Origin: Cyrtodaria siliqua
Lineage: Eukaryota > Mollusca > Bivalvia > Adapedonta > Hiatellidae
Length of the DNA stretch: 64,000 bases
Direction of reading: 5' to 3'
Assembly (NCBI GenBank): GCA_037043455.1
Contig: JAWPHD010004372.1
Coordinates: forward strand, 1-64,000
The notes below the pieces were generated by a model, which was given only the letters and a program-made list of their open reading frames with translations, was not told where the DNA came from and searched no databases. A program made the translations under genes and the position numbers. Positions 36,401 to 64,000 of this stretch are shown here, piece by piece (the first letter of the stretch is position 1; each line of letters opens with the position of its first letter).

Positions 36401-39400
36401 TGAATTAAGTAAAAAAATATATCAAAAAAGAAGCTGGTATGAGGTCTAGATCTATCGTACGTAGAGGAAATACGAACAAGGGCAAGCAGTTAGTGCGAGA
36501 TAATTCTTCCAAAAGTGGTGGGAAACGTAGTAATACTCCAACGAGCAGCGAAAATGTTAATGAACAGAATGGAAATTCGAACAACGCATCTGCCCTATTG
36601 TTTGGGGCGCTTGTTTCAGCCAAAGGTTTTTTGGACTTTTAAGATAAAATTAATCTACTACCTATATAAGTTATATATCAGTGGAACAGACATTTTTAGT
36701 GGTAAATAAAAATACCTTACTTTTCAAAATCGGTTGAGAAATAAAAATTTCATGTGCGAAAGTTGATTTTGATGGGTCATTTTCAATGCAAAATTCTGCT
36801 GCATGAAAAATTCGAAAAATATATTTTTTTAGATTTTTTATTCAAAAATAGTTTTAAATTGTTGGATATTACTACATTAAGACACCCTGAAAGTTTTATA
36901 AAAAAATATCAAGTTTTACTGAAGTTATTTGACATTTTGTAATTATCTGCTGTCCCACCAACAAGGAATTTACATAGGAAAAGCCCCATCAAAAAATCAT
37001 TTTGGCTGTAAAATATGTATTTCTCAACTGATTTTCAAAAGTAAAGTAGTTTTATTTACCACTAAAAATGCCAGTTCTAATGCTATATGACTGATGTACG
37101 TATTATTTAAATTGCTCCAGTTACTGCAGAAAAACCTTTGGCTGAAACAAGCGCCCTAAACAATAGGTGGAAATGAAGGCGACGGTAGAGATAAACTGTC
37201 AAATACACAGGGAACTGAGTCTGAACATGAGAGCATTGATGATTAACTTTAGGACGTACGATTAAATTTGCGTTGTTAAATGTACAGGGATTTAGAGGTA
37301 AACGTTATAATAAATTGGAATCTCCGGAACTGATTGATATTTTTGATAAACATGACATAGTGTTACTGACAGAAACATGGACAAATGAAAGCTCAAATGT
37401 TGATGTAGATGGTTTTGAGTCTTTTGTGTTAAATAGAACGCTTAAAGTAAAAAATACTAAAAGGGATTTAGGTGGGTTAATTGTTTCTATCGCAGATAGA
37501 TTAGTAACTAATGATATCTTAATCAAAAAATTTAGTGATTGTGTAATTTGGGTTAAATTAAACGGTGCATTATTTAACTAAAAAGAGGATGTTTATTTAT
37601 GTTTATGCTACAATATACCTATGGGAAGCGGTAGAGGCTTATTCGAAGATAACAGTATTTTTGATATTATGTTGAATGACATGATTCTTTTCGAAAACAT
37701 GTCTGATAATAAATGTAACTTTATTATATGTGGGGATATGAACGCCAGATCGGCAACAAGTTGTGACTTCGTTGAAAATGACTCTTTACATATATCTGAT
37801 ATTTTACCAGATGACTATATTGTTGATACACCAGTTGAACGTTTTTCTGAAGATAAAGTATTAAATGAATATGGTAGAAATTTGTTGGAATTGTGTATAC
37901 ATACAGGATTAAGGATAATGAATGATAGGGTAGGGGGAGATAAATATATTGGAAGGTATACCTGTATCAAAAATAAAGGAAGCAGTGTAATAGATTATGT
38001 TTTATGCAGACCAGACATTGTTAATCTATTTCGTACGTTCGAAGTTCAGGAACCGACATTACTATCTGATCACTGTGTTGTAAGTTTTTCATTAAGCGCA
38101 AATGCAGTTATTAAAGAGGAGGTAAAACATATACAGGGTAAAAAAACAAAACTTTATCTATAAATGGGATAACGATAAAAAAATAAATTACATTGATGAT
38201 TTTAACCAACTACATGTTAGAGAAAAAATGAGTCATATAACCGAACAACTACCCAAAATTCTACATCCGGATGAGCTGGATATGAACTTAGATGCATTTT
38301 ATGATATTATTAGTAATGTATGTGACCCATTATTTAAGAAAACTGTAAATGCAACAGAAATTAAACACAGAGGTAATACATGTATTAACAATCAAAAGTG
38401 ATTTGATGATATATGCAGATCAAAACGAAAAGAGTTTTATCAACTGTTAAACATATATAGGTCGGATAAAAGCGACATTAATCGAATAAATATGGCACGT
38501 TCCAGAACTGAATATAAAAGTTCTATTAGGCAAAATAAATACTTATATGACAAAACACAGACACATAAGTTAGAAATAGCGCGTTTTAAAAATGCAAAAC
38601 AATATTGGAATATGCTGAAAGGTGAGCAACTTCATAAAAAATCAAAAACGTTATCTGTCGATCACTTTGCGAAATATTTTCAAGCTATAAATGATCCAAA
38701 TGATGTATTTTACCAACCAGATGAGGACGTTATATTATTCAATGAAAGATATTTAAATGGGGAGTTACAAGAAATGTTTGAAGAATTAAACGTTGAAATA
38801 TCGATCATTGAAATAACAAAAGCCTGCAAACAATTAAAAATGGGTAAAAGTGGGGGACCAGATAACATGATTAATGAATTTTTTCGTTATGGAATTGATA
38901 ATACAGGTGTTTTACCTTATATTTTCAAATTATTTAATAATGTGTTTAATGTAGGTTATTTCCCAGATAAATGGACAGACGGATATATTGTACCATTACA
39001 CAAAAAAGGTAGTATTAATGAAGTTAACAATTACAGGGGTATTACACTTTTAAATACGTTTGGCAAACTATTTACAAGAATTTTAAATAACAGGTTAAAT
39101 GATTGGGCCGAGAAGTATAACGTTTATGTAGAAGCGCAGTCTGGATTTAGAAGAAATATGGGAACAGTTGATAATATTTTTATTTTACACGGCATTATAC
39201 AGCATACAATTAATGAGGAAAAACGTTTATTTGCTGCTTTTATAGCTTTCACAAAAGCTTTCGATTACATAGTAAGGGACATATTGTGGTTAAAACTGAT
39301 TAAGTTTGGTGTAAGAGGGAAAATACTTGATATTATTGAATCTATGTATAAATCAGTGAAATCATTTGTTAAATATGATAATGAGTTAAGTGAGGATTGT

Positions 39401-42400
39401 TCATGCTACTTAGGGGTAAGACAAGGAGAATGTTTATCATCTTTTTTATTTGCTATGTATTTGAATGATACTGACGATTATCTCATTAGAAATGATGTTA
39501 AAGGTATTGAAGTTGGTTTATTGAAGATGTTCTTGCTTATGTATGCGGATGATATTGTTGTATTTTCTAATACTGAACAGGGCCTTCAGAAAGGATTAGA
39601 TGTTTTACATGATTATTGCAATAAATGGAGATTAACGGTAAATACCGTGAAAACCAAAATCATGATATTTAGAAGGGGTGGTTTATTACCAAGAAATTTA
39701 CATTTCATGTATGATGGTAAAAATATAGACATTGTGAACCATTTTACATATTTGGGTATTGTTTTTACTACGGGTGGGTCGTTTTCTACTACTCTTGATA
39801 CATTAGCTGGTCAGGCAGGCAAAGCCATCTTTAAACTTAACAAATATTTACAAAAATTTACAGAATTATCTACAAGACATGTGTTTGATTTATTTGATAC
39901 ACTAATAAAACCAGTATTGCATTACGGTTGCGAAATTTGGGGGTTCTTAAATGCAAACGTAGTAGAACGTGTACATCTCAGTTTTTGTAAAAGTACACTT
40001 GGGGTAAAAAAATCTACTCAAAACGATTTTATGTATGGTGAAATAGGCAGGACACCTTTAACACAGCAACGATTGATATCTGTGATAAAGTATTGGTTAA
40101 AAGTTTTAAATTGTGAAAGTAATAAATATATAAAAGCTGTCTATAATATGATGCTCTGTGATACTGCGATGAGGCCAACTAAGAAAAACTGGGCATCAGC
40201 GGTACAAACTTTGTTAGAAAACTTGGGGTTTAGTTACGTCTGGATATTCCAAGGAGTTGGAAACATGAATATGTTCATATCAATTTTTAAACAAAGAATG
40301 ACAGATACATTTATTCAAAACTGGAATACCCGTATACATGACTCCTCGAGAGCTAAAACGTATTCACTTTTTTGTGTATTTTCTCAGAAATCATATCTAG
40401 AAACTGTTAAAATAAGAAAATTTAGAGTAGCATTATCAAGATTGAGAATGTCTTCCCATAGGCTGCAGATAGAAGCGGGGCGTTGGCATAAGCCATTAAG
40501 TATACCTTTTAATGAGCGCAAATGTATTATATGTGACGTTCTAGAAGACGAATACCATTTTATTTTGGAATGCACTTTATATAAAGAACTAAGAACAATG
40601 CTTATCAAGCGGTACTATTGGCAGAGACCAAATATTCCTAAATGTATTGAATTGTTGTCATCAGAAAAGAATATTACTGTAAAGAATCTAGCTACTTATG
40701 TTTTTGATGCTTTCAAAATCCGAAACGAATTATATTATAATACTTTTTAAATACTGGTACTCTCCCAAGAGGTACTCTACATTTTGAATATGTCAAATGG
40801 TATTTTTGTCTGTGAAAGGTAGTATTGAGTTGCGTTTTTATACTAAATAAATGCCTTTGATAACTATTTGTATAGTATATTGGAAATATTATTAATTAAA
40901 TCAATTTAGCATGCTATATTAAGCAAATGGTAGTAATATTTAAGATTTCGTATTGCCATTGACTTCTGTATTTGAAAATTATTTGTAATTCTGTATACTC
41001 ATGGACCAAATGGTCTACTGTATTATTGAATAAAACATATGTTATGATCAGTGAAATGTGTACTGTGACAAATGGCTGGGGTAGGTGGACATGTATTCGG
41101 AAGAAGTGGTTTGTAGTGGTAAGATATCATACAGTTTGGGTTTTTTAATGTTTGACACTGATTTTTGTCACATGTGTGTGCCACGTAGGGCTGATCATGA
41201 GATTTTCCTGGTGGAAACCAGTATTGCATGGCCTGCGTCAGGAAATAGCATGCTCAAGCAAAGTTTCAAAGCTGTATATGTTATAGTTACTGAAAGGAGT
41301 GCACCTTAAAGACACAGTAGTCGTTGAAAAATCATGGATAGCATGCTTTTTAACTGCTTACTTCTCGCTGACTGATTACCAGAGACATTATACTGAGGCC
41401 CCATCACAGTTTTTCTTTTCATTTACTATTACCTTAGTTTTTAGTATAAAATATATTGTAACTAAAAACACTAGATTGTTTATTATTGGGGAGCATAAAG
41501 TCGCCGGTTTTCCGTCCGTCCGTGTGTGCGTCCGTGCGTCACTTTTTGTCCGGGCATAACTCAAAAAGTATGCTTGATTAAAGTTCGTGTGAATGATTAG
41601 GACACTGGGGCGGGTCCAAATTTGACCTCAGGGTCAACATTAGAACAAACTAGTTAGAGGACCATAAGACGATGTTACATGCAAAATATCACAGCTCTAT
41701 ATCTTGTATTTTTGCAGAAGATTTTTTAAGATTTGTTAAATGAAACTGATAGGCCCCATTGCGGGGGCATTTATGACCTCAGGTGCACCATTCGAACAAA
41801 CATATAATGATGCTTCACATAAACTTGAGGTCGTCCGTGGTCGAGTGGTCTCAGACTTGAAATCACATGTCCCTCACCGCTGTGGGTTCGATTCAAGCTA
41901 TCCAGCTTGCTTGCGGAACGTCGGTGGTTCTACTCAGGTGCGCGCCCGTGCACGAAAAAATGCCCGGGTTTGCACCTGGGGTTTTCCTCCACCAATAAAA
42001 GGCTGGAATGTCGCCAAATGACCTTAGCTTTTGGTGCAACTATAAAATCCAGTTTAATGAATTCATATAAGATTTGGTTGAATTCCGACAAGCGGTTTTT
42101 GAGAAAAAGTCGTCAGAAGCAAAAGATAACGACGACGACGACGGACGACGGACAGACAACGGACGGACGAAGAGTGATTCTAAAACATCACATTGAGCCT
42201 TCGGCTCAGTGATCAAAAACACTGACAGATGACAACGATTTTTGAATTTTGAAGTCCCGATGAGTTACTTGCATTTGAGATTTACTAAAACATGGCAGAG
42301 AAGTAACTGATAATAGAGTATATTGTGCTAAAAATACAAAAACTATTAATTGTTAACACGGGTCTTTTAAGAAAATCCATCTATACCTAGTTGTTTTAAC

Positions 42401-44160
42401 ATATATACAAGTGCACATAAAATGCAAAACGGTTATAATTTAATTTTAATCACGTGCTCCTCCATATGTCACGTGCTCCTCCATTTGCAGCATAAAAAAG
42501 CAAATACAAATATAGGCTGAGCGCTCAGGGCGCGCCGCCAATAATAAATGTGTGGGTTTCACTACACACTCAGATGTTGCTATTTTGGCTACATAAATAC
42601 ACTATTGGTCCATCTAAATCAAACATTTACAAGCTAAAGTTCATGTAATGTCAAACATTGATATTTGCTCCTATTAAAATGCACAAAATTGAGTGCATAC
42701 CACTTCAGGTCCCATTGCACAGTTTGATCCCTTGTATATGACTGTAGGACCATATGTAGGAATATATTCAGTTGTAAGAATAGAGCACCTTTTCCGAATT
42801 CCTATGTATCTTTCCATTCTCTCTCTGGCACGGGTGACCCCGTGTACAGCAAGTTTGACTTTGTATCCGGAGACAAAACACTTCCCCTAGTCTCGCCCGT
42901 CGGATGGGGACGTTAAATGGGCGATCACGTGTATCGGAATCTATCCTCCAAGCACGATAAAGAATTATAGGAATCTGACTGTCAGTAAGAGTAAGGCAGG
43001 TTCCTGGATTCCTATGTACCCGTCCCCTCTCTCTGTGGTGGCTCGAAATAGCCTAAACAATAGACTGGTTATCAATTCAAACCGGCGGGGGCGTCCGTGG
43101 CCGAGTGGTTAGAGTCTCTGACTTTAAATCACTTGCCCCTCAACGCTGTAGGTTCGATCCCTCAGGGGCGTAGGAATCGTTATGTGAGGAAGCTATCCAG
43201 CTGGCTTGCGGAGCGTCTGTGGTTCTACTCAGGTGCCCGCCCGTGCACAAAAAATAAAAAATGCCCGGAGGGGCACCTGGGGTCTTCCTCCACCAGTGGA
43301 AGCTGGAATGTCGCCATATGACAGCTGTTTGTACTACTATAAATCCAATTCATTTCAATTCAAACCCTGGGGTGGCTAAAACACATGTTACAAAGTGTTG
43401 ATGGGCCGTTAAACAACGATTCAATAAAAATAAAACTATACTGTGAAAAAGAAACAAGCTCAGTCTCTCCTTGTGTGGCTCGATATTTGTTGATGAGACA
43501 TTAAACAATAATTCAATAAAACTAAAACGACACTGAAATAAATTAATTTTAATCTATTTTGCAGGCGTACAAGCGGTTAAATCCGGTGAGTGGGGAAAAT
43601 GGCGACCGATGTGGCTCTGTGGCATGGAGATGACCCAGAAAACAGTCGGCATACTCGGTCTCGGACGTATAGGATATGGCGTTGCTAGGAGACTAAAACC
43701 ATTCGGTGTGCTTTCAATTCTGTATCATGATATTTACTCAGCAGCCTACGCGGAGGATATTGGAGCTAAGTTTGTTGACTTTGAAACTTTACTGACAGAA
43801 TGCGATATTATATGTATCTGTTGCAACCTAACACCGCAAACAAGGCATAAATTCAACAAATCAGCTTTTCAAATCATGAGAAAGAGCGCCATATTGGTAA
43901 ACAGCGGACGCGGAGGAGTTATAAATCACGACGATTTGTTGGAGGCATTAACTTCCGGTGAAATTGCTGCTGCGGGATTGGATGTTACCGAACCGGAACC
44001 GCTTCCGGCGAATCACCCTCTCATTCATTTGAATAACTGTATCGTTCTTCCGCACATGGGAAGTAGTACATGGGACTCTAGAAACAGCATGGCGGAAACA
44101 GCGGCAAGCAATATTGTAGCTGTATTTGAAAAGAAACCAGTGATAGGACTTGTTCAATAA
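30234..44160 (+). CDS. GRHPR: Glyoxylate/hydroxypyruvate reductase (GRHPR-like), three exons
   Basis: Exons 30234-30438, 33110-33280 and 43565-44160 join in phase to 323 aa; vertebrate GRHPR is about 328 aa. The enzyme reduces glyoxylate and hydroxypyruvate with NAD(P)H, removing glyoxylate. Residues 1-68 start with KVYITRRIPQSGVDIL. TMSVGYEHID is at about 77-86. GLGRIG at 157-162 is the nucleotide-binding turn. The catalytic triad of D-2-hydroxyacid dehydrogenases is intact: Arg241 in NSGRGG, Glu270 in TEPEPLP, His289 in LPHMGSST. An in-frame ATG at 30123 would add 37 residues; I prefer 30234 because it matches the family start and has a GAAAATGG context. Intron 2 (10.3 kb) holds a LINE, a fold-back element and SINEs. 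AATAAA overlaps the stop codon. Confidence 0.95.
30439..33109. other. GRHPR intron 1
   Basis: Contains an AAATAAATAAATAA run (30640-30695), an R4 MITE copy (31176-31765), a CGTCGCGTCCCGTC-rich stretch (32078-32165) and a roughly 250-bp unit repeated in tandem almost twice (32330-32790, 'GGAATGAGATATTGGCATGA', 'TCACTGGGGTCAAGGTCATTG'). No exon recognised. Confidence 0.7.
31176..31765. mobile_element. MITE family R4, copy 2
   Basis: Starts TTAAAGGGAATGCAGACACA and ends in AACTTTCCCTTAA. It carries the same mirrored 'TATCAAAATCGAATGATAAACA' / 'TTATTATCCGATTTTGATAA' arms and 'CTATGACGTCATATTTCT' as the copy at 6357. Confidence 0.85.
33110..33280 (+). CDS. GRHPR: GRHPR exon 2
   Basis: 171 nt. 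Acceptor TTCTTATTTCAG, donor CAAGAAG|GTAAAC. It encodes PNLKVVSTMSVGYEHIDLS and VAELTVALLLLTARRLQE, the hinge between substrate-binding and nucleotide-binding domains. Confidence 0.95.
33454..35746. mobile_element. 2.3-kb fold-back element with 5-bp target duplication
   Basis: Two arms, 33454-34399 and 34802-35746 (about 945 bp each), are near-perfect reverse complements around a 402-bp spacer. The outer ends are CACACCCGATTACCGGCAGC / GCTGCCGGTAATCGGGTGTG, followed inward by two tandem copies of CGGCAGCCGTAGGCACA(G/T)TT. TTATC occurs immediately outside both ends (33449-33453 and 35747-35751). Mirror-image open frames in the arms (at 33915-34157 and 35043-35285) encode nearly the same peptide but resemble no known protein. 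It lies in GRHPR intron 2. A 5-bp duplication with CAC termini is what Transib/RAG-type transposition produces, but without a transposase the superfamily is inference. Confidence 0.88.
35897..36025. repeat. 129-bp near-perfect hairpin
   Basis: GAATATTATGTCAGTGCCTT with TTACTATCAA on the left is matched by its complement GGCACTGACATAATATTC on the right, around a loop with AGGCTCGGCACGAAAACG. A MITE-sized palindrome with no coding capacity. Confidence 0.85.
36439..37246 (+). pseudogene. Possible LINE ORF1 relic, interrupted
   Basis: An ATG at 36439 opens a basic, Ser/Asn-rich frame (RRGNTNKGKQLVRDNSSKSG) that runs to the MITE at 36594. Beyond the MITE an acidic frame (GNEGDGRDKLSNTQGTESEH) ends in TAA at 37244-37246. 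The two frames become continuous when exactly the MITE is left out. There is no RNA-binding motif, so ORF1 identity rests only on position before the endonuclease. Confidence 0.4.
36594..37167. mobile_element. 574-bp MITE with long inverted arms, nested in the LINE
   Basis: The left end CCTATTGTTTGGGGCGCTTG then TTTCAGCCAAAGGTTTTT matches the complement of the right end AAAAACCTTTGGCTGAAAC then AAGCGCCCTAAACAATAGG. The arms remain complementary further in ('TTTTTAGTGGTAAATAAA', 'TTTTCAAAATCGGTTGAGAAATA'). No target duplication longer than 2 bp is visible. Confidence 0.85.
37259..38163 (+). pseudogene. LINE apurinic-type endonuclease domain
   Basis: One frame with a TAA stop at 37579-37581 in the middle. 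Catalytic motifs of APE-type LINE endonucleases are visible: LNVQGFRGK, LLTETWTN (metal-binding Glu), ICGDMNARSA (Asp/Asn pair), VIDYVLCR and LLSDHCVVSFSL (Asp-His). The enzyme nicks target DNA to prime reverse transcription. A frameshift in the A-rich run near 38140-38160 separates it from the reverse transcriptase frame, which then carries a TGA at 38399-38401. Confidence 0.88.
38492..40750 (+). pseudogene. LINE reverse transcriptase with C-terminal zinc motif
   Basis: An uninterrupted 752-codon frame. It carries the RT fingers motif GKSGGPDNMINEFF, then VPLHKKGSINEVNNYRGITL, QSGFRRNMGT, motif A FIAFTKAFDYI, motif B GVRQGECLSSFLFAMYLND, motif C YADD (residues 351-354) and the C-terminal CIICDVLEDEYHFILEC (CxxC...H...C). 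In active LINE RTs motif A is F-[IV]-D, with the Asp binding the catalytic metal; here codon 252 (39245-39247) is GCT, Ala. So despite the long frame the enzyme should be dead. The upstream linker and endonuclease are joined in the original ORF2 but broken here. Confidence 0.93.
41041..41479. other. GRHPR intron 2 sequence after the LINE
   Basis: No exon or repeat recognised. The open frames have no protein character. Confidence 0.6.
41480..42230 (+). repeat. GGGCATAACTC / GGACGACGGAC dispersed repeat, interrupted by a SINE
   Basis: Contains CCGTCCGTCCGTGTGTGCG, GGGCATAACTCAAAAAGTA, repeated 'GACCTCAGG' and 'GAACAAAC' words, GGTTTTTGAGAAAAAGTCG, then ACGACGACGACGGACGACGG and AGCCTTCGGCTCAGTGAT. 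These are, from general knowledge, typical words of dispersed bivalve repeats. SINE-A is inserted at 41828-42066. Confidence 0.7.
41828..42066 (+). mobile_element. tRNA-derived SINE-A, copy 1
   Basis: The head has A-box-like GTGGTCGAGTGG and B-box GGTTCGATTC. The body contains GGTTCTACTCAGGTGC, CACCTGGGG, TTTTCCTCCACCA and GGCTGGAATGTCGCC, and the tail ends ACTATAAAATCCAGTTTAAT. The same order recurs at 43087-43365 and reversed at 54001-54274. Confidence 0.85.
42838..43080 (+). repeat. Dispersed repeat family R6
   Basis: 'GTCTCGCCCGTCGGATGGGG', 'GGAATCTATCCTCCAAGC', 'GGCAGGTTCCTGGATTCCTA' and 'GGTGGCTCGAAATAGCCTAA' match 22845-23090 and partly 59100-59290. Confidence 0.65.
43087..43365 (+). 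mobile_element. tRNA-derived SINE-A, copy 2 (best preserved)
   Basis: A box TGGCCGAGTGGTTAGAG and B box GGTTCGATCCC are typical RNA-polymerase-III promoter elements of a tRNA head with a long variable arm (Ser/Leu type). Then come GGAAGCTATCCAGCTGGCTT, CAGGTGCCCGCCCGTGCAC, GTCTTCCTCCACCAGTGG and a tail AAATCCAATTCATTTCAATT. The downstream stretch to 43560 has two copies of a TTAAACAA(C/T)(G/A)ATTCAATAAAA tail, probably from another short element. Confidence 0.88.
43565..44160 (+). CDS. GRHPR: GRHPR exon 3 (terminal)
   Basis: 596 nt including the TAA stop. Acceptor ATCTATTTTGCAG. It encodes the whole nucleotide-binding domain, all three catalytic residues and the C-terminus (FEKKPVIGLVQ). Vertebrate genes split this part over several exons, so intron loss here or gain there is implied. 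Confidence 0.95.
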
Positions 44161-61952: not shown

Positions 61953-63104
61953 TTACTCTTTAATATTAAGACCAGTCAACTTTGTTTTGTTCTGTTTTTT
62001 AGCATAACCAACATCATCTTTCATGATGCTTATTCCATCTATTGTTGCTTCAAACAATACAATCCAGCTTGCATTGTCTATTTTTACTTCCAACTCATCA
62101 ATTATACCAAGAAATGATGTGTGCCGACTATCAGACTTTTGATTAAAATGTTTCAATAAAGCTATTTCATTATCAAAAGTTTTGCTTTTTCCATCCTGGA
62201 CAGCTTTTAATTTCTTTGAAGAATCAGCAATAGCAGTCTCTAGTTTATTAGTGTCAACCATTGTTTCATTAATTTTATGTAATTCTGTTCTAATGCACAT
62301 TTGAGAGTTATGTCTTTATCAAAAGCTTTGTTTTTTCATCCTGGGCAGCTCTATCAACCATTTTATTTAAAGCAGTCTCCAACGACTTACCATCAACCAT
62401 TTTCTTTTTAATGTCTTCAAACTCTTTGTTGATATCGTCAACGTTAGTGTTTATCTGTTCATTGGATATTTTAATTTTAGTTATTTCGGTAGTAAAAGCA
62501 GTTCTCATTTGTGTTGTAGCTTCAGCAATAGCAGCTTCAAGTTCATTGTTATCAACCATTTGTTTATTGATTTCTTTAATTCGCTCATTAATACTGTCAA
62601 CACCAACTTGTATTTTTTCGCCTAACTTTTTATAGAGCTCGCTATCATCTTCCAATCCATCTTCTTTCTTTTCTAACTCTTTCAAAGTATCACCGAGAAG
62701 TTTTATATCATCTTTCAAGCCATTTTGAATTTCGATCATTTTCTCACGGTTTGTCGGTAATTGCTTTTGTATCAGACTTATTTTGTCACCACATCTGTTG
62801 TCAAATTTTTCATCATGTCTGGAATTTTATCCATACTATAATCACGTATGATCTATGCTACTCTTCTTGCAGTAAATTGCTTTGTTGCCACATCATCTGC
62901 TTTTTCTGGATTGCCAACATTGATAATTATATTTTTATCCATATCAATATCACTTCTCAGAATATTTCCCTGGTTTTTACCCTTGTGAAGAAAATTAACT
63001 AGATGTTACTGTTTTACATACTCAGACAGTACAATACCAAAATTTGTAATATTAACACCGCCTGAACTAGCTTCCTCGCTTCCAAGATCATTAAAAAGTC
63101 CCAT
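61953..63104 (-). pseudogene. Virus-like coiled-coil fibre protein, disrupted
   Basis: On the minus strand an ATG at 63104 opens MGLFNDLGSEEASSGGVNIT and soon stops. A shifted frame carries ILRSDIDMDKNIIINVGNP, then ADDVATKQF, a module familiar from phage tail-fibre proteins (xMxxNxIxNVxxPxxxxDAATKxYV). After another break an open frame (62739-62308) is heptad-rich, with repeated (M)VDxxxLExAI words, and a further frame (62300-61953) repeats VDTNKLETAIA and ends with SWIVLFEATIDG. The layout, a short N-terminal attachment part, a long coiled coil and a C-terminal globular end, suggests a trimeric fibre or spike. It is an old, broken copy. Function is inference; no exact family is recognised. 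Confidence 0.55.
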
Positions 63105-63135
63105 TAATATGATAAGATTAAATTCCACCAGTGAA

Positions 63136-63732
63136 TTATTTTTTTACCAACTTCCTAGGACGATCTCATACTGTTTGCCAGTTGCTTTTTACTAAAACCC
63201 TGTTCGTTGGAAAGCATACCCAGCTCACGATTAACTGGAGTTGCGAAGAAAATATAATGAGAAAGGTCAACCGAATGTCTTTGGGAGTTTTGTAATAAGA
63301 TTGTGACAAGTAAATCACGCAACAATTCTTATGCCTGCCTTGGATGAAATAATTGACAATATTATTTTGGTTACGCTCGCAAAATATCATCGAAAATAGC
63401 TATCTTTTGAGTATCAGAATCCAAATCATTCACAGGGATAACTTGATCATCTGAACACTCCAGTATGTCTTCGACTGAGAATTTATTCTTTTTTGCTATC
63501 TTTTCAAGTTTTTGCGACAAGACCTGATACTTCGACTGTTCCAAGATTTTAGCAAACAAGTAAATCCTTCATAGTAAACTAAAGGTTTCAGCAACATGTG
63601 AACTAATGTGTTTGTCTTGACAGATCCTGAATTACCGCATGTAAGCATTCTAAAACAACAGACCGGCATGAAGTTCCATATCTGTTTGAAATTACTGTTG
63701 TCTGTCTTCATATCATAGTTTGGAATTTCCAT
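63136..63732 (-). pseudogene. Virus-like FtsK/HerA-type packaging ATPase, disrupted
   Basis: An ATG at 63732 opens a frame with the P-loop region TCGNSGSVKTNTLVHMLL. The Walker A glycine before the Lys is Val here. A frameshift near 63550 leads to a second frame with QKIAIFDD (Walker B), and another near 63385 leads to NNIVNYFIQGRHKNCCVIYL and SQSYYKTPKDIRL, the sensor region characteristic of A32-like genome-packaging ATPases of Polintons/Mavericks, adintoviruses and large DNA viruses. An in-frame TGA precedes the last residues, which end at TAA 63136-63138. Length (about 199 codons) is near the usual size for this family. It is clearly a dead copy: Walker A change, two or more frameshifts, one stop. 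Confidence 0.8.
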
Positions 63733-63836
63733 TATAATAATACTTGGATAATACTTAACTAGTCTTAACTCATGTTATTTTATCTAACCCTATAGTATAC
63801 ATGTCTTTGTTAAAGTGGAAATAATTAGCGAATAAA
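63733..63836. promoter_or_regulatory. AT-rich divergent spacer
   Basis: 104 bp between the minus-strand ATPase start and the plus-strand open frame. It is strongly AT-rich with TATA-like words (TATAATAATA, CTATAGTATA) in both directions. A shared bidirectional promoter would fit the compact layout of such elements, but this is inference. Confidence 0.3.
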
Positions 63837-64000
63837 ATGCAAATATCGAATAATCGTGTTAAAGAATATGAAAATAAAGTTATTCAAAAAAGACTAGAAA
63901 CAGGAGCTAGTAAGGATTTATACCAAAAAATGCTCGAGTCAGTAACTAGTAAAATAACAGAGCAAACAAGACAGCTAGCTGAACATTTGGTTACCCTTCC
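63837..64000 (+). CDS. Open frame running off the window, virus-like block
   Basis: An ATG at 63837 opens 54 codons without a stop to the window edge (MQISNNRVKEYENKVIQKRL, then LETGASKDLYQKMLESV). The translation is Lys/Glu-rich and predicted helical, with A-rich codon use like its neighbours and an AATAAAATG start context. It is divergent from the ATPase with a 104-bp spacer. I do not recognise the protein. Confidence 0.45.
   Translation, partial: MQISNNRVKEYENKVIQKRLETGASKDLYQKMLESVTSKITEQTRQLAEHLVTL

What the first reader, a model, noticed from the sequence alone, without database searches (positions are those of the whole stretch)
61953..64000. Old virus-like element (Polinton/Maverick or adinto-like) at the right edge
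A packaging-type ATPase relic (P-loop, Walker B, SQSYYKTPKDIR sensor), a coiled-coil fibre-like gene on the same strand and a divergent open frame are packed with short spacers, unlike the rest of the window. The ATPase family is used by Polintons and related DNA viruses for genome packaging. The element is broken in the genes visible, but its other half lies beyond the window.
Basis: partly seen in the sequence, partly recalled or inferred. Interest (0 to 1): 0.75.

Follow-up and report, generated by a model that had tools for sequence, protein, structure and literature searches.

The report
Broken Maverick (Polinton) copy at contig edge
The right edge of the window holds one decayed, left-truncated copy of a repeated virus-like DNA element (a Maverick or Polinton) that is present in dozens of copies in this genome; it is a new member of a well-known kind rather than a new kind of system.

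Summary
Window 62002-64000 is the left part of an 11.4-kb relic that ends at contig position 73411. Beyond the window the same copy carries endonuclease-VII and family-B DNA polymerase frames and a VLTF3-like gene. The stretch is repetitive: 63 alignments over 40 scored places, a lower bound. The window copy is cut off inside the fibre gene. A sister copy on contig C6960 is full length: 14,756 bp, terminal inverted repeats (a 343-column stretch is 92% identical), termini AGTAGT//ACTACT, and a perfect 6-bp target duplication. It also carries integrase with chromodomain, a parvovirus-type PLA2 protein, and protease-, capsid- and penton-like frames. The ATPase of sister copies is Pox_A32 (best E 7.9e-12). 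The gene set closely matches published insect Mavericks (PMC5803895, passages). At least 7,994 polymerase relatives exist in public proteins; the 120 listed are 58-63% identical. Less usual are the VLTF3-like gene (already reported in adinto-like insertions of Amoebidium, PMC11244446) and the fibre gene. Verdict: new member of a known kind. Capsid, penton and protease identities rest on position and recalled motifs, not on profile hits.

The parts
62002..64000 (.). Part of the Maverick/Polinton relic inside the window; it continues on the same contig to position 73411 (L009:9411)
   Evidence: blastn against ten sister copies: 6 of 10 matches begin at 62016, one each at 62002, 62013 and 62077, and only the C2806 copy continues further left; right terminus in L009
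62016..63128 (-). Fibre-like gene relic: N-terminal part (63006-63128), then coiled-coil frames; broken into several frames and cut off before its C-terminal part
   Evidence: tblastn with the 448-aa frame L016:1060-2403 hits 62939-62016 in four main pieces in three frames, plus one weak piece; N-terminal junction read; no Pfam family above cut-off, no solved-structure match at E <= 0.1
63121..63765 (-). Packaging-ATPase relic (Pox_A32 type in sister copies), broken in this copy
   Evidence: tblastn with L022:2609-3289 hits 63765-63121, 49% identity, E 3e-61; Pox_A32 in sister frames; the window frames alone give no Pfam hit above cut-off
63837..64000 (+). Start of a divergent gene (proline-rich and acidic N-terminal part; conserved domain beyond the window at L009:799-1308, read as the same gene by eye), function unknown
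   Evidence: open frame running off the window; continuation frames in L009; the domain has one weak relative, P0002, 35% identity over 45% of the query
61953..62001 (-). Not part of the element: flanking sequence left of the truncation point, read in frame with the fibre relic by chance
   Evidence: no match to the left sequence shared by sister copies; of the ten copies compared only C2806 shares it

Best explanation
A dead, left-truncated copy of a Maverick/Polinton (adinto-like) element. Shown: dispersed copies; inverted termini with (AGT)2//(ACT)2 ends; a 6-bp target duplication in the full-length sister copy; and integrase-chromodomain, Pox_A32 ATPase, family-B polymerase, endonuclease VII, PLA2 and VLTF3-like frames. 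Inferred from the named families: a virus-like linear dsDNA is inserted by the integrase, copied from its ends by a protein-primed polymerase, packaged by the ATPase into a capsid, and carried into cells with fibre and PLA2. The VLTF3-like protein would switch on late genes. The window copy cannot do this: its left half is gone and its visible genes are broken.
For: Copies: 63 alignments over 40 scored of 3448 candidates. Same-copy polymerase module: Endonuclease_7 8.7e-7, DNA_pol_B_2 2.8e-5 and 6.6e-6, Pox_VLTF3 2.5e-6. Left module in C6960: rve 1.3e-7, Chromo 1.5e-6, PLA2 1.7e-15, DUF5679 4.6e-12; the PLA2 protein matches solved chains named Capsid or Capsid protein VP1, best 5.2e-10. A32: 3 of 3 ATPase-bearing frames. 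Termini: 343-column repeat at 92%, 18-base identical tips, TSD CGGATA/CGGATA, size 14,756 bp. End motif, TSD length and size range as published for vertebrate Mavericks (PMC8097293, passages and section 7 read). Polymerase relatives listed are 58-63% identical; one of them, P0014, scores DNA_pol_B_2 1.5e-20.
Against: No profile or solved-structure hit supports the capsid, penton or protease assignments. The rve score (32.2 bits) and the single-piece polymerase scores (23.6 and 25.7) are just under their Pfam cut-offs. The 482-aa polymerase frame L016:7602-9047 gave no Pfam hit at E <= 0.01 and no solved-structure match at E <= 1. TSD and both termini were seen in one copy only. The VLTF3 frame of the full-length copy gave no Pfam hit.
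Confidence: 0.95

Rival explanations
1. A fragment of an inserted giant virus (Nucleocytoviricota), which also uses A32-type ATPases and VLTF3.
For: Pox_A32 and Pox_VLTF3 in the near-identical pair C4372/C2806 and in C315.
Against: The full-length unit is 14,756 bp with inverted termini and a 6-bp target duplication and carries a retroviral-type integrase with chromodomain; the polymerase is of the DNA_pol_B_2 plus endonuclease VII type. No other giant-virus gene appeared among the frames scanned, but not every frame was scanned.
Confidence: 0.02
2. An ordinary cellular P-loop gene or a bacterial-type insertion sequence next to an unrelated coiled-coil gene.
For: The window frames alone have no Pfam hit above cut-off.
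Against: Sister frames hit Pox_A32 at up to 7.9e-12, against 6.8e-4 for Zot, 1.2e-3 for Septin and 6.7e-3 for AAA; the block repeats together with polymerase frames, and with integrase in C6960.
Confidence: 0.01
3. ATPase and coiled-coil are one fused gene (packaging ATPase with a coiled-coil tail).
For: One open frame of 496 aa spans both in L004; frames in L005, L014 and L018 span at least the ATPase C-terminal part and the coiled coil.
Against: In L016, L024 and L030 a stop follows the ATPase a few codons before a methionine that starts the fibre-like protein; several other copies need a frame change at the junction. The fusion looks like decay of two adjacent genes.
Confidence: 0.1

Closest known systems
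Spodoptera frugiperda Maverick 1 and 2 (PMC5803895; passages read)
   Same: A32-type ATPase, rve integrase with chromodomain, capsid-like protein with parvovirus-type PLA2, protease ORF, polymerase B2 with recombination endonuclease VII domain (several of these with weak E-values in that paper's table)
   Different: The passages read name no VLTF3 and no fibre gene; sequences were not compared here
Vertebrate Mavericks (PMC8097293; abstract, passages and section 7 read)
   Same: Two gene modules with polymerase and integrase; TIRs; 6-bp TSD; (AGT)2//(ACT)2 ends as the most common motif; sizes 12.7-24.6 kb
   Different: In vertebrates the ATPase sits in the polymerase module and PZ/PM/PW are named; here the ATPase lies with the fibre, penton-like and capsid-like frames on the strand of the integrase, opposite to the polymerase
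Adintoviruses (defined in PMC11071296, passages read; original paper not held)
   Same: Integrase with C-terminal chromodomain; PolB; adenovirus-like virion module inferred
   Different: OTU-like PolB domain and BLAST-recognisable hexon were not established here
Adinto-like insertions of Amoebidium (PMC11244446; passages read)
   Same: VLTF3 together with PolB and capsid proteins
   Different: Complete insertions about 30 kb; an ichthyosporean host; a Dam methyltransferase is named there

Membership tests
Maverick/Polinton | Family-B (organellar/viral type) DNA polymerase | tested here: met
   DNA_pol_B_2 2.8e-5 and 6.6e-6 on two pieces of this copy, just under the cut-off; relative P0014 1.5e-20, from a listed set 58-63% identical to the C6960 frame. 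Protein priming itself cannot be tested with these tools
Maverick/Polinton | RVE integrase | tested here: met
   rve 1.3e-7 (32.2 bits against cut-off 32.6) and Chromo 1.5e-6 in C6960; absent from the window copy
Maverick/Polinton | A32/FtsK-type packaging ATPase | tested here: met
   Pox_A32 in 3 of 3 ATPase-bearing sister frames
Maverick/Polinton | Terminal inverted repeats | tested here: met
   C6960 ends: 18 identical tip bases and a 343-column stretch at 92%; the window copy keeps only its right end
Maverick/Polinton | 6-bp target site duplication | tested here: met
   CGGATA on both sides of C6960:85548-100303; one copy tested
Maverick/Polinton | Double-jelly-roll major capsid and penton | tested here: inconclusive
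   Frames in the expected place; no relevant Pfam or solved-structure hit; assignment by position and recall
Maverick/Polinton | Adenovirus-type cysteine protease | tested here: inconclusive
   L032:3394-3861 has HW, DPFG and CGYFC stretches (motif recalled, from no call); no Pfam hit at E <= 10, no relevant solved structure
Adintovirus | Integrase with C-terminal chromodomain | tested here: met
   rve and Chromo frames in C6960, in overlapping frames
Adintovirus | PolB with N-terminal OTU-like domain | tested here: inconclusive
   Candidate Cys and His stretches seen by eye in L009 and L028 frames; no profile or structure test
Adintovirus | Hexon recognisable by BLASTp against adintovirus hexons | not tested
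   No adintovirus reference proteins were on hand
Nucleocytoviricota insertion | Giant-virus core genes beyond A32 and VLTF3 | tested here: inconclusive
   Among the frames given to Pfam only A32 and VLTF3 hit; not every frame was scanned. The 14.8-kb unit with TIRs and integrase speaks against it

The most novel reading that the evidence does not exclude
The element is a distinct Maverick lineage that carries its own VLTF3-like late transcription factor and a dedicated attachment fibre with a C-terminal head. It would then run a virus-like early/late programme and cell-to-cell spread, rather than only moving as a transposon.
Probability: 0.3. Interest if true: 0.4.

Novelty: new member of a known kind. 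Interest (0 to 1): 0.2.

Why it matters
It confirms that a P-loop relic, a fibre relic and a divergent frame read by eye from raw sequence were enough to recognise a Maverick. It also adds a family with a VLTF3-like gene and a PLA2 protein to the record of virus-like elements in a large eukaryotic genome. Mavericks are already listed at thousands of copies in a bivalve genome paper (PMC8905726; one table passage seen, with 7,091 and 6,453 copies in its two column sets, column headers not seen), so the presence of one is not surprising.

Tried and rejected
Rejected: 61953 as the left end of the element (flanking sequence from 62001 leftwards). Rejected: 62016 as the true left terminus of the family; sister copies share more sequence to the left, up to the 1.5 kb looked at in four of them (L020, L022, L024, L028) but only 93 bases in L014, including penton-like frames. 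Rejected: an ATPase-fibre fusion gene. Led nowhere: six scans of viral contigs (polymerase, capsid-like, divergent-gene domain, penton-like, integrase, protease-like frames) found no relative; these scans need exact short peptides, so they do not show absence. Protein search with the VLTF3-like frame found nothing at E <= 0.001. Solved-structure searches for ATPase, protease-like, polymerase, capsid-like and fibre frames gave nothing useful. PHROGs gave endonuclease VII, and otherwise only coiled-coil noise. VLTF3: of five frames scanned, two hit Pox_VLTF3 (C4372 and C315) and three did not: L020 (C1188) and L016 (C6960) align only with the N-terminal part of the gene, and L014 (C4925) aligns with most of it but still gave no hit (alignments). 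C2806 also hits but is a near-duplicate of C4372. In C6960 the DNA of the C-terminal half is present (86.8%) without a Pfam hit. Literature: VLTF3 in an animal Maverick was not seen in the listings of searches (25 of 115, 15 of 24 and 15 of 119 papers listed, as titles and abstract starts). These searches cover open-licence PMC papers only, and the adintovirus founding paper is not held. How many copies keep the left half could not be counted, because the genome search did not complete.

Full report
Observation. The ATPase frames of the window alone match no Pfam family above cut-off. The DNA stretch as a whole gives 63 alignments over 40 scored places out of 3448 first-look candidates in the 2.88-Gb genome, 76-100% identical. 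The tool calls such counts lower bounds.

Right side of the same copy. The contig continues to 189,761 bases. In 64001-74000 (L009) the frames in order are: the rest of the divergent gene (+), an unknown conserved domain (L009:799-1308, +), a protein with two membrane-like stretches (by eye; L009:1384-1698, +), a VLTF3-like gene (L009:1791-2273, -; Pox_VLTF3 2.5e-6), an endonuclease VII piece (8.7e-7) and polymerase pieces (DNA_pol_B_2 2.8e-5 and 6.6e-6). The copy ends at contig 73411 with the terminal motif read inward as AGTAGTATAGAAACTG. A 1.5-kb direct duplication covers the right end and about 175 bases of flank (70591-72086 and 72085-73588, 97.5%). About 1.7 kb at 66602-68274 is absent from sister copies other than C2806 and holds tandem repeats (67270-67794). 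At 66.25 kb this copy lacks 0.84-0.99 kb that is present in L014, L016 and L020. There it holds the cysteine-rich start of the VLTF3-like gene and, read by eye, the start of the polymerase gene.

Left side. Ten sister copies were compared (L012-L031). Six of ten matches begin at 62016, one each at 62002, 62013 and 62077, and one (C2806) continues into the flank. To the left, the non-C2806 copies share sequence with each other that the window lacks, from 93 bases (L014) to the full 1.5 kb looked at. So the window copy is truncated inside the fibre gene, before its C-terminal part. Sister proteins for integrase, PLA2, protease-, capsid- and penton-like frames find nothing in contig 1-94000 at E <= 0.01. 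The C2806 copy is 98.3% identical over 62002-66254, 98.8% in the first 0.67 kb of right flank and 92.7% in 1 kb of left flank: an allele or a segmental duplicate.

Full-length sister copy. On C6960 the element runs from 85548 to 100303, 14,756 bp. Both tips read AGTAGTATAGAAACTGGGGG inward. The repeats are 92% identical over 343 columns, with shorter blocks nearer the tips. The flanks carry CGGATA on both sides. Each repeat also holds an inverted, slightly changed copy of its own tip; such pairs are also seen at the right ends of the window copy (L009) and L028, and one arm in L023. Genes from the left, all on the - strand: integrase (rve 1.3e-7) with chromodomain (1.5e-6); a protein with parvovirus-type PLA2 (1.7e-15) and DUF5679 (4.6e-12); a protease-like frame; frames that recall membrane-active virion proteins; capsid-like frames; penton-like frames; fibre; ATPase. 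On the other side of a short divergent spacer come the + strand genes and polymerase described above. The protease-, membrane-, capsid- and penton-like labels are by position and recall. PLA2 matches solved chains named Capsid and Capsid protein VP1, best 5.2e-10, one of them named Adeno-associated virus DJ.

ATPase. Three of three ATPase-bearing sister frames hit Pox_A32 (7.9e-12, 1.3e-11, 8.1e-11; cut-off 22.8 bits), with Zot (6.8e-4), Septin (1.2e-3) and AAA (6.7e-3) far behind and below cut-off. Next to it, one 496-aa frame spans ATPase and fibre in L004. The junctions in L016, L024 and L030 show a stop and then a new methionine, so these are two neighbouring genes.

VLTF3. Pox_VLTF3 is reached above its cut-off in C4372 (2.5e-6), its near-duplicate C2806 (2.7e-6) and C315 (1.1e-6); frames from C4925, C1188 and C6960 did not reach it. 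DNA of the gene region is shared by further copies.

Relatives. The 482-aa polymerase frame of C6960 has at least 7,994 relatives at E <= 0.001 (only the 7,994 candidates sharing most words were scored). The 120 listed are 58-63% identical; the five with names are Montipora and Oculina. Relative P0014 carries DNA_pol_B_2 (1.5e-20) and endonuclease VII (3.2e-6), and is 55% identical to the endonuclease piece of the window's copy. The divergent gene's domain has one weak relative. Six viral-contig scans found none.

Comparison with the known. Spodoptera Maverick 1 and 2 encode A32-like ATPase, integrase with chromodomain, a PLA2 capsid-like protein, protease and polymerase B2 with endonuclease VII (PMC5803895, passages). 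Vertebrate Mavericks have 6-bp TSDs, most commonly (AGT)2//(ACT)2 ends, and sizes of 12,723-24,620 bp (PMC8097293, passages and section 7). Adintoviruses are defined by PolB with an OTU-like domain, a recognisable hexon and integrase with chromodomain (PMC11071296, passages). VLTF3 occurs in adinto-like insertions of Amoebidium (PMC11244446, passages). Mavericks are listed at thousands of copies in a bivalve genome paper (PMC8905726, table passage). The present family is therefore a Maverick/Polinton by ends, target duplication, integrase, ATPase and polymerase. Whether it is an adintovirus in the strict sense is open.

How it works. Inferred from the families, not shown here: integrase-mediated insertion, protein-primed copying from the ends, packaging by the ATPase, attachment by the fibre, membrane passage by PLA2, and late-gene control by the VLTF3-like protein. 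The window copy is inert by its anatomy.

Noticed in passing
L010 and L011 (contig C4372 74853-80334 and 81490-87497): Large inverted repeat right of the element, arms 98.7-98.9% identical in two blocks of 2.06 and 3.29 kb, with parts also in C2806: a palindromic duplication or an assembly feature.
   Followed up: partly
L032 from 1524, L009:9221-9411, L028:2126-2209, L023:2481: The terminal repeat contains an inverted copy of its own tip (pairs in L009 and L028, one arm found in L023, slightly changed copies in C6960), so each end could fold back on itself.
   Followed up: partly
L009:799-1308 (contig 64799-65308): Conserved domain of unknown function at the end of the divergent gene, with one weak relative in the protein collection (P0002).
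   Followed up: partly
window 37582-38163 and 38402-40750: Endonuclease-like frame followed by a 782-aa reverse-transcriptase-like frame, typical of a LINE-type retroelement (family recalled, not searched).
   Followed up: no
L011:3517-7643: Frames that look like a Gypsy-type LTR element (zinc knuckle, protease, reverse transcriptase, integrase) near the Maverick but outside it (recalled, not searched).
   Followed up: no
window 43537-44160: Exon-like frame resembling a D-2-hydroxyacid dehydrogenase (recalled, not searched).
   Followed up: no
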